Below, piece after piece: positions 1 to 49,112 of a DNA stretch of 64,000 nt. Position numbers and translations under genes: made by a program. Origin of the DNA: Flavobacteriia bacterium (lineage in GTDB: Bacteria; Bacteroidota; Bacteroidia; Flavobacteriales_D; Crocinitomicaceae); assembly GCA_947450325.1 (NCBI GenBank), contig CANFUT010000017.1:1-64000 (forward strand). Direction: 5' to 3'. The notes beneath the pieces were generated by a model that worked only from the letters and a program-made list of their open reading frames with translations, was not told where the DNA came from and made no database searches. Numbering within the stretch: position 1 is the first letter of the stretch; the number at the start of each line of letters is the position of its first letter.

Positions 1-108
<108 letters not shown>

Positions 109-19017: not shown

Positions 19018-19090
19018 CTATTTGTTATTATAAAGAGCACCATGAATTAAGGCTTTTCCTTCGATGGTGTTGTTCTCCTATTTGTTATTA
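19018..19090 (-). promoter_or_regulatory. Structured rpsK-rpsD spacer: hairpin flanked by a 13-bp direct repeat
   Basis: CTATTTGTTATTA occurs exactly at 19018-19030 and 19078-19090. Between the copies, CACCAT/ATGGTG (19038-19043 with 19064-19069) encloses a second small stem AAGG/CCTT (19049-19052 with 19058-19061). It sits immediately ahead of rpsD on the transcript, and a candidate function is S4 autoregulation. The structure is visible; the function is inferred. Confidence 0.45.
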
Positions 19091-48667: not shown

Positions 48668-49112
48668 TCGAAGTTCCAACTAACAATTATTCGATAAAAT
48701 AAATTTTGTTTATGAATAGAAACAAATCAAAATGTTTTAGATTTTAAATGTTGCGTGGCTTAAATTAATTGTTTTATACTTTTGGCCTTGGAAGAAAGGT
48801 TTTTAAAGTCGCACTGAAAATGTAGACTTTTGGAGGAAGCTACGAAGTGTCAACGTAGTAGATCACCGACAAAATCACGTTTTCAGAAGATTTTAAAATA
48901 AAGCGCTTGAGTCGAGAATTTGAATTCGTACAAAAATTTGCGCTTTAACTTGATGACTCAGCCTTGATTTTTGGGTTCGTTTTGATCAAGCAAAAGGAAC
49001 AAAGAATTTTAGTCGGAAGATAACTGCAATTATACTTTTTAATGTTATTGGGTCATTTTTTGATACTTTAGCACCTGATTTTATTAAATCAACAAAATAG
49101 ATACAAAATTCA
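48668..49112 (+). other. 445-nt intergenic region with a candidate structured RNA
   Basis: No protein gene fits here. A TTG (48752-48754) and a near-consensus TATACTTTGG (48776-48785) could be a promoter. From about 48800 to 49000 several nested complementarities occur: 48801-48807/48892-48898, 48814-48823/48877-48886, 48839-48844/48854-48859, 48900-48906/48940-48946, a possible pseudoknot 48908-48913/48955-48960, and a final hairpin 48975-48984/48991-49000. G-U pairs in two stems favour the plus strand. I could not match it to tmRNA, RNase P RNA, SRP RNA or 6S RNA. Confidence 0.45.

What the first reader, a model, noticed from the sequence alone, without database searches (positions are those of the whole stretch)
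48752..49000. Candidate novel structured RNA with possible H-type pseudoknot upstream of plsC-like gene
A 445-nt gap with no protein gene contains six complementary pairs in a nested order: 7 bp (48801-48807/48892-48898), 10 bp (48814-48823/48877-48886), 6 bp (48839-48844/48854-48859), 7 bp (48900-48906/48940-48946), a 6-bp pairing that would form a pseudoknot (48908-48913/48955-48960), and a 10-bp hairpin with one mismatch (48975-48984/48991-49000). The two stems with G-U pairs pair properly only on the plus strand. A promoter-like TTG/TATACTTTGG precedes it. It matches none of the classical housekeeping RNAs by eye.
Basis: partly seen in the sequence, partly recalled or inferred. Interest (0 to 1): 0.6.

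Follow-up and report, generated by a model that had tools for sequence, protein, structure and literature searches.

The report
Jumping DNA carrying a structured RNA
The segment is one copy of a small jumping DNA element, scattered through the genomes of some flavobacteria, whose core is kept in shape as a folded RNA with a knot-like end; it is not in the RNA family library searched, and its job is unknown.

Summary
Window 48784-49008 is one of 16 dispersed copies in its genome; DNA search finds more in two of four other same-genus genomes. A model of the core matches 26 of 120 genomes, 9 of 24 genera, of the family. No Rfam match. Covariation is strong: 334 double-changed cells against 96 in shuffles, 28-85 in slid controls. 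G-U cells outnumber A-C cells 106 to 29, pointing to plus-strand RNA. The unit moves as DNA: a sister copy has an empty site in two relatives with a 12-bp duplication; a second subfamily has inverted ends and empty sites at 3 of 3 loci tried. Neighbouring genes vary, so a plsC leader is rejected. Best reading: a MITE-like element carrying a selected structured RNA. Transposase, transcript and RNA function remain unknown.

The parts
48678..48690 (+). possible left copy of an old, imperfect target duplication (AACTAACAATTAT)
   Evidence: compared by eye with 49022-49033; exact core CAATTAT in both; tentative, no empty site found for this copy
48691..48783 (+). left flank of the mobile unit, AT-rich; shared with part of the copies only; weak promoter-like TATACTTTTGG at its end
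   Evidence: read by eye; exact TAnnTTTG in 3 of 36 copies
48784..49008 (+). conserved structured RNA core, from GGCCTTGG to GGAACAAAG
48784..48786 (+). P0, GGC pairing with GCC 48961-48963 (its last base overlaps S1a, so the two compete there)
   Evidence: 2 of 3 pairs never vary in A1, so little evidence either way
48801..48810 (+). P1 5' strand, pairs with 48889-48898
   Evidence: 5 of 10 pairs with double changes in A1, 10 of 10 in A3
48814..48820 (+). P2 5' strand (CTGAAAA), pairs with 48880-48886 (TTTTCAG)
   Evidence: 0 of 7 pairs with double changes in A1, 5 of 7 in A3
48825..48836 (+). P2b 5' strand, pairs with 48866-48876; beside it a conserved internal loop GGAAG/GATCACC
48840..48843 (+). 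P3 5' strand CTAC, pairs with GTAG 48858-48861
   Evidence: one pair shows all four Watson-Crick types, AU 32, UA 23, GC 10, CG 9
48899..48906 (+). TAAAGCGC arm of the second hairpin, pairs with 48940-48947; variable interior
   Evidence: 8 of 8 pairs never vary in 25 copies, so no covariation evidence
48963..48968 (+). S1a CTTGAT of the 3' interleaved pairing; pairs with ATCAAG 48985-48990
   Evidence: 150 of 150 cells paired in A1; sixth pair Watson-Crick in 110 of 114 segments; 4 of 6 pairs never vary in A4
48975..48984 (+). S2a GTTCGTTTTG of the 3' interleaved pairing; pairs with CAAAAGGAAC 48991-49000
   Evidence: 5 of 8 counted pairs with double changes in A4
49009..49021 (+). right flank of the mobile unit, with an AGTCGGA inverted-repeat remnant
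   Evidence: comparable with the right end of copy L038, which an empty site defines
49022..49033 (+). possible right copy of the old target duplication (AACTGCAATTAT)
   Evidence: tentative

Best explanation
This is a non-autonomous, MITE-like mobile element of about 330-350 bp. Its core, about 225 nt, is kept as a folded plus-strand RNA: a long hairpin with a conserved GGAAG/GATCACC internal loop, a second hairpin, and a 3' end in which CTTGAN pairs with the loop of the last hairpin in H-type pseudoknot order. Shown: dispersal; empty sites with target duplications for sister copies; inverted ends in the sister subfamily; covariation; plus-strand bias. Inferred: a transposase encoded elsewhere moves the DNA; the insert is transcribed, from a weak promoter of its own or by read-through from the gene in front; the compact RNA with its knotted 3' end shields or ends the transcript. 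That would keep insertions between genes harmless and the element alive. I give the mobile, RNA-structured element 0.7 and the shielding role alone about 0.3.
For: 16 copies in the own genome; full or partial copies in G001 and G004, mostly beside different genes. Empty site for copy L038 in two relatives with a 12-bp duplication; element 362 bp including a 23-bp mini-insert. Sister subfamily: inverted ends (12 of 21 rows show the left motif, 12 the right, 7 both by pattern); one exact 8-bp duplication confirmed by empty sites in two genomes, two more loci empty in relatives but diverged. Covariation on A1: 11 of 57 pairs against a shuffled mean of 2.8; on A3: 30 of 32 pairs and 334 cells against 96. 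G-U 106, A-C 29. 3' pairing: 110 of 114 against a permutation mean of 86.8, maximum 95; 44 double-changed cells against 14.1. In five orthologous pairs the core has 26 differences in 975 positions, the left flank 47 in 548, DNA upstream 144 in 1948.
Against: No transposase or autonomous partner was found by end sequence in four genomes. The window copy has no empty site in the four relatives searched, and its duplication is imperfect. The search for direct repeats over all copies is weak: 15 of 36 copies reach 9 bases against 27% of controls. One of the five orthologous pairs carries the core-versus-left contrast: without it 22 of 857 against 17 of 438, p = 0.23; core versus upstream stays at p = 0.0005. 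In one search two of five measures do not exceed shuffles (6 pairs against 4.6; 13 types against 13.0), and 4 of 6 S1 pairs never vary. In segments without a strong S2, 93 of 113 also pair at the sixth S1 position. The promoter is weak and no transcript data exist here. S1 and S2 could form in turn rather than together.
Confidence: 0.7

Rival explanations
1. The fold acts as single-stranded DNA. The element is a REP/IS200-like unit whose hairpins are read by a Y1 (HUH) transposase, and the RNA look is a by-product.
For: Y1 transposases occur in G000, G001, G003 and G004. PMC6006769 (passages read) says that Bacteroidetes subclass 2.6 genes are flanked by atypical structures with copies elsewhere in the genome. 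Tandem head-to-tail units exist in G099 and G123.
Against: For 15 of 19 Y1 hits I read 260 bases upstream and 300 downstream by eye and saw neither this element nor its 3' hairpin. G099 and G123, rich in copies, show no Y1 hit, though they are incomplete. Target duplications of 8 and 12 bp and inverted ends do not fit IS200/605 (recalled). The G-U over A-C bias favours RNA.
Confidence: 0.12
2. A host trans-acting small RNA gene family that was multiplied by riding on a transposon; the RNA has a cellular target.
For: The core diverges more slowly than the DNA further upstream in orthologous pairs. The internal loop is conserved across genera. Matches in 9 of 24 genera.
Against: Patchy: no match by DNA in G003 and one weak model hit; 1 to 25 matches per positive genome; some copies lose part or all of the core. 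An essential RNA would not be expected to be so uneven.
Confidence: 0.12
3. A cis-regulatory leader of the plsC-like gene, as the title of the finding suggests.
For: It lies about 105 nt upstream of the gene in the same orientation.
Against: The other copies lie beside different ORFs, in front of, behind and between convergent ones. In G001, G002 and G003 the flank query matched the plsC-like side alone, or the other flank elsewhere.
Confidence: 0.02
4. An ordinary MITE without RNA function. Covariation is inherited from a few active source copies and reflects only the palindromic needs of DNA.
For: Empty sites, duplications and inverted ends; copies with internal deletions.
Against: Covariation in nested and interleaved helices across genera, the G-U bias and the slow core against upstream DNA are more than a DNA palindrome needs.
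Confidence: 0.2

Closest known systems
MITEs (miniature inverted-repeat transposable elements; features recalled)
   Same: short, no ORF, dispersed, target duplications, inverted ends, no transposase of its own
   Different: a core of about 225 nt that covaries as RNA across genera; ends of the window subfamily are short and decayed
Mobile/repeat sequence candidates such as MRSC-65-2 (PMC11109978, passages read)
   Same: structured motif in several copies per genome, orientation to genes not consistent, thought selfish
   Different: no adjacent transposase noticed here (flanks not scanned by Pfam); the UYCCGG repeat named there was not looked for
REP sequences with RAYT/TnpA-REP (PMC6006769, passages read)
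   Same: dispersed extragenic structures, Y1 genes in some of the same genomes
   Different: about 340 bp rather than 20-40 bp (length from the start of the PMC3733652 abstract, search listing); the Y1 genes read are not flanked by it
HEARO / omega RNAs and IS110 bridge RNAs (recalled)
   Same: mobile DNA that carries a conserved structured RNA
   Different: no Rfam match at gathering; inverted ends and target duplications; adjacency to IscB, TnpB or IS110 genes not tested

Membership tests
MITE | target site duplication at insertions | tested here: met
   12 bp with empty sites in two relatives for sister copy L038; exact 8 bp with empty sites in two genomes for L129; the window copy itself shows only an imperfect repeat
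MITE | terminal inverted repeats | tested here: inconclusive
   clear in the sister subfamily (both motifs in 7 of 21 rows by pattern); in the window subfamily a short imperfect TTGTCCGA / AGTCGGACGA pair seen by eye
MITE | no coding capacity | tested here: met
   no ORF of 60 aa or more in 48668-49112
MITE | autonomous partner with the same ends | tested here: inconclusive
   none seen with end sequences in G000, G001, G003, G004
REP/RAYT | short palindrome beside the tnpA-REP gene | tested here: not met
   element about 340 bp; flanks of 15 of 19 Y1 hits read by eye, none carries it
Rfam families (release 15) | match at or above a family's gathering score | tested here: not met
   whole window: only 16S and an S4 leader elsewhere; 15 loci: none; one search shows only sub-threshold matches
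HEARO / omega RNA | adjacent IscB or TnpB gene in some copies | not tested
   flanking ORFs listed but not scanned against Pfam
cis-regulatory leader | constant position upstream of related genes | tested here: not met
   different ORFs and orientations in the copies (ORFs not annotated)
H-type pseudoknot RNA | two interleaved helices that both show compensatory change | tested here: met
   A4, 24 of 32 hairpins: S1 99.3% and S2 97.8% of cells paired, double changes in 1 of 6 and 5 of 8 pairs; S1 sixth pair 110 of 114
H-type pseudoknot RNA | both helices form at the same time | not testable with these tools
   S1b fills the whole six-base loop of S2; needs probing

The most novel reading that the evidence does not exclude
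The RNA itself takes part in mobility. The conserved core with its knotted 3' end is a guide or scaffold for an unknown transposase, much as bridge or omega RNAs serve their enzymes, and this is why the RNA outlasts changes of the DNA ends between subfamilies.
Probability: 0.12. Interest if true: 0.85.

Novelty: new variant of a known kind. Interest (0 to 1): 0.55.

Why it matters
Mobile DNA that preserves an elaborate RNA fold is uncommon, and some such RNAs proved to guide the mobile element's enzyme (recalled: omega and bridge RNAs). Here is a family with dozens of natural variants, empty sites and a defined fold, in flavobacteria. It gives a direct way to ask what selects an RNA inside a transposon. 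A U-rich strand followed by an A-U helix whose loop pairs back is also a testable 3'-end structure.

Tried and rejected
Rfam at gathering and at E up to 10 on the segment: only sub-threshold matches there. Phage and plasmid records by distant blastn and one exact pattern in viral contigs: nothing. Y1/RAYT association: flanks of 15 of 19 hits read by eye, not met. Autonomous partner by end sequence: not found. Direct-repeat search over all copies: weak (15 of 36 copies with 9 or more bases, against 27% of 1260 mismatched controls), so I rely on empty sites. Copy C12c has an exact 12-base repeat, but its flanks in G001 are about 174 bases apart and in G004 on separate contigs, so it is not a clean empty site. 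A Bacteroidota promoter box (consensus recalled) is exact in 3 of 36 copies: not claimed.

Literature: five full-text searches, with terms on REPs and Bacteroidetes, Flavobacteriales and dispersed repeats, MITEs and structured RNA, candidate structured RNAs, and Fluviicola. Only the 8 to 15 papers listed by each were seen, as titles and starts of abstracts; none of these described this element. Passages were read in PMC2864571, PMC6006769 and PMC11109978. Not in print is therefore claimed only for these searches.

Rows left out: A1 holds 25 of 39 aligned copies; A2 holds 25 of the 39 plus L004; copies with inserts or deletions were mostly dropped. A3 comes from 72 chosen loci and includes one antisense match (L016 minus, 25.5 bits) and repeated loci (82 of 84 rows distinct); 144 of its cells are mismatches other than A-C. 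The 114 segments were found by a pattern that needs CTTGA and TCAAG, so only the sixth pair is a test; they include overlapping segments (71 after merging: 67 paired against 49.8). A4 holds 24 of the 32 hairpins; of the eight dropped, three (L173, L078, L012) have an imperfect S1, the others long or different stems. The five orthologous pairs were picked by eye from flank likeness. Genome searches over 40 genomes score fewer candidates per genome with stricter filters.

Full report
What is there. The plus strand of 48780-49020 folds at -67.1 kcal/mol, z -3.75 against 200 shuffles. No Rfam family matches here at gathering; at E up to 10 only sub-threshold matches appear.

It is a repeat. A DNA search of 59 related genomes returned places in 13, with many in the own genome and in two of four other same-genus genomes. 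Searched alone, the own genome has 16 copies at 79-100% identity. G001 shows 14 and G004 30 matching places, many of them partial and several at contig ends; G002 and G003 show none by DNA, though the RNA model later gives one weak match in G003. Thirty-nine copies were aligned. By my reading 34 run from GGCCTTGG to GGAACA without a break other than mini-inserts; two have internal deletions and three are cut inside the last hairpin. Left of this core only part of the copies agree.

It is a fold under selection. On 25 copies, 99.1% of cells pair and 11 of 57 pairs show double changes, against a mean of 2.8 in shuffles and 1-3 when partners are slid. A model of 101 core positions (R1) finds matches in 26 of 120 genomes of the family, 9 of 24 genera, and in 14 of 299 genomes of the order, all but one in the same family. 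On 84 matches (82 distinct) from 72 loci, 30 of 32 pairs show double changes, 334 cells in all, against 96.2 in shuffles and 28-85 in slid controls; the covariation score is 0.349 against 0.136. The alignment was fitted to the model, so the absolute figures lean to it. G-U cells number 106, A-C cells 29 and other mismatches 144; shuffles give about 214 G-U and 131 A-C, with a ratio never above 1.81 in 200. In the sequences not used to build the model the counts are 66 and 27.

The 3' end. The last hairpin, GTTCGTTTTG/CAAAAGGAAC, has the loop ATCAAG, which is complementary to CTTGAT just upstream of the T run. In relatives the last base of CTTGAN changes with its partner: T-A 98, C-G 7, A-T 4, G-C 1, not paired 4 of 114 segments with a strong second stem; 110 paired against a permutation mean of 86.8 and maximum of 95 in 20000. 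Segments without a strong second stem pair at this position in 93 of 113. On 24 chosen hairpins (23 distinct) 98.4% of the cells of both helices pair; 44 cells carry double changes against 14.1 in shuffles and at most 3 in slid controls; five of eight S2 pairs and one of six S1 pairs show them, and four S1 pairs never vary; the number of pairs changed (6 against 4.6) and of pair types (13 against 13.0) do not exceed shuffles. The two helices are interleaved, as in an H-type pseudoknot. S1 fills the whole six-base loop, so the two may form together, as in loop-loop contacts, or in turn. This was not decided.

It moves. For copy L038 the relatives G001 and G004 have the uninterrupted site; the own genome has 362 bp more, flanked by ATTTAAAATCAA twice. 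The insertion changes the last codons of the gene in front (my reading of the sequences). A second subfamily, 20 matches of about 28-34 bits in G001, was fetched as 18 stretches from G001 and 2 from G004. Its ends read GGGTAAAACTTA...GAGGTGCTGA and the inverse at the right; four units measure 394-448 bp. For three loci (L129, L120, L121) relatives match across the predicted junction in one piece. At L129 the junction is base-exact in G000 and G001 with an 8-bp duplication; the other two sites are too diverged to fix the duplication. The window copy shows only an imperfect repeat, AACTAACAATTAT / AACTGCAATTAT, and no empty site was found for it. In G099 and G123 units stand head to tail, sometimes reduced to the left part and the 3' hairpin.

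Is it constrained in place? In five orthologous pairs the core has 26 differences in 975 aligned positions, the left flank 47 in 548, the DNA further upstream 144 in 1948. Without the pair G0_C10a/G1_C9 core and left flank no longer differ clearly (22 of 857, 17 of 438, p = 0.23), while core and upstream still do (p = 0.0005). This suggests, but does not prove, selection after insertion.

Context. The nearest ORFs differ from copy to copy and lie in various orientations (mechanical ORFs, not annotated). Searches of plasmids, phages and viral contigs found nothing. One exact pattern in genome contigs gave nine stretches, all from one metagenome-assembled genome titled Flavobacteriia bacterium isolate RE-26jul17-152; contig lengths shared loci indicate that this is G004. 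Records of the window's own genome may be left out of that scan.

Rivals. Y1 transposases are present in 7 of 11 genomes searched, and a paper describes atypical structures beside a Bacteroidetes subclass (PMC6006769, passages), but the flanks read do not carry this element. No partner transposase was found by end sequence.

Conclusion. A MITE-like element with a conserved RNA core whose 3' end has knot-order pairing. That it moves and that it folds as RNA are well supported; that it is transcribed, what moves it and what the RNA does are inference. It is filed as a new variant of a known kind because mobile elements with structured RNAs are known, while this fold and its vehicle were found in no library or paper listing searched here.

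Noticed in passing
L036, L043, L038, L040, L039, L054, L045, L056, L060, L062, L064, L065 (copies): Mini-inserts of 23-30 nt (such as ACTTCCGAAGGATGCAGCGAAGCT) sit at the same few positions of the RNA in different copies; orthologous copies in two species differ by 24 gap columns in 3 of 5 pairs. Two of the insert types are near reverse complements of each other.
   Followed up: partly
L060, L064, L065 (G004 contig ends): In G004 three copies are broken inside the 3' hairpin at ACCGCGCAAGCAG by the same following sequence, as if another element inserts there.
   Followed up: no
L166-L185 (G099, G123): Head-to-tail arrays of units, some without the RNA core; the core is flanked by GCCTTG direct repeats that could explain its loss.
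   Followed up: partly
L008, L017, L022, L027 (G040): A different long core, with the same kind of 3' hairpin, in places about 500 bp apart on one contig; suggests that the 3' module is shared by several element families.
   Followed up: no
L011, L018, L028 (G021), L010 (G050), L013 (G023): Likely relatives with a similar internal-loop motif (GAAG...ATCAC) and 3' hairpin; G021 and G023 gave no R1 match.
   Followed up: no
L029 562, L077 1120, L083 2015 (positions in the oriented loci): Hairpins of the CTTGAT...ATCAAG kind that stand apart from the R1 core.
   Followed up: no
window 19038-19069: S4-Flavobacteria ribosomal protein leader (RF03141) on the minus strand, 41.9 bits.
   Followed up: no
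window 1-108: Part of a 16S rRNA gene on the minus strand, model positions 1-109 (RF00177).
   Followed up: no
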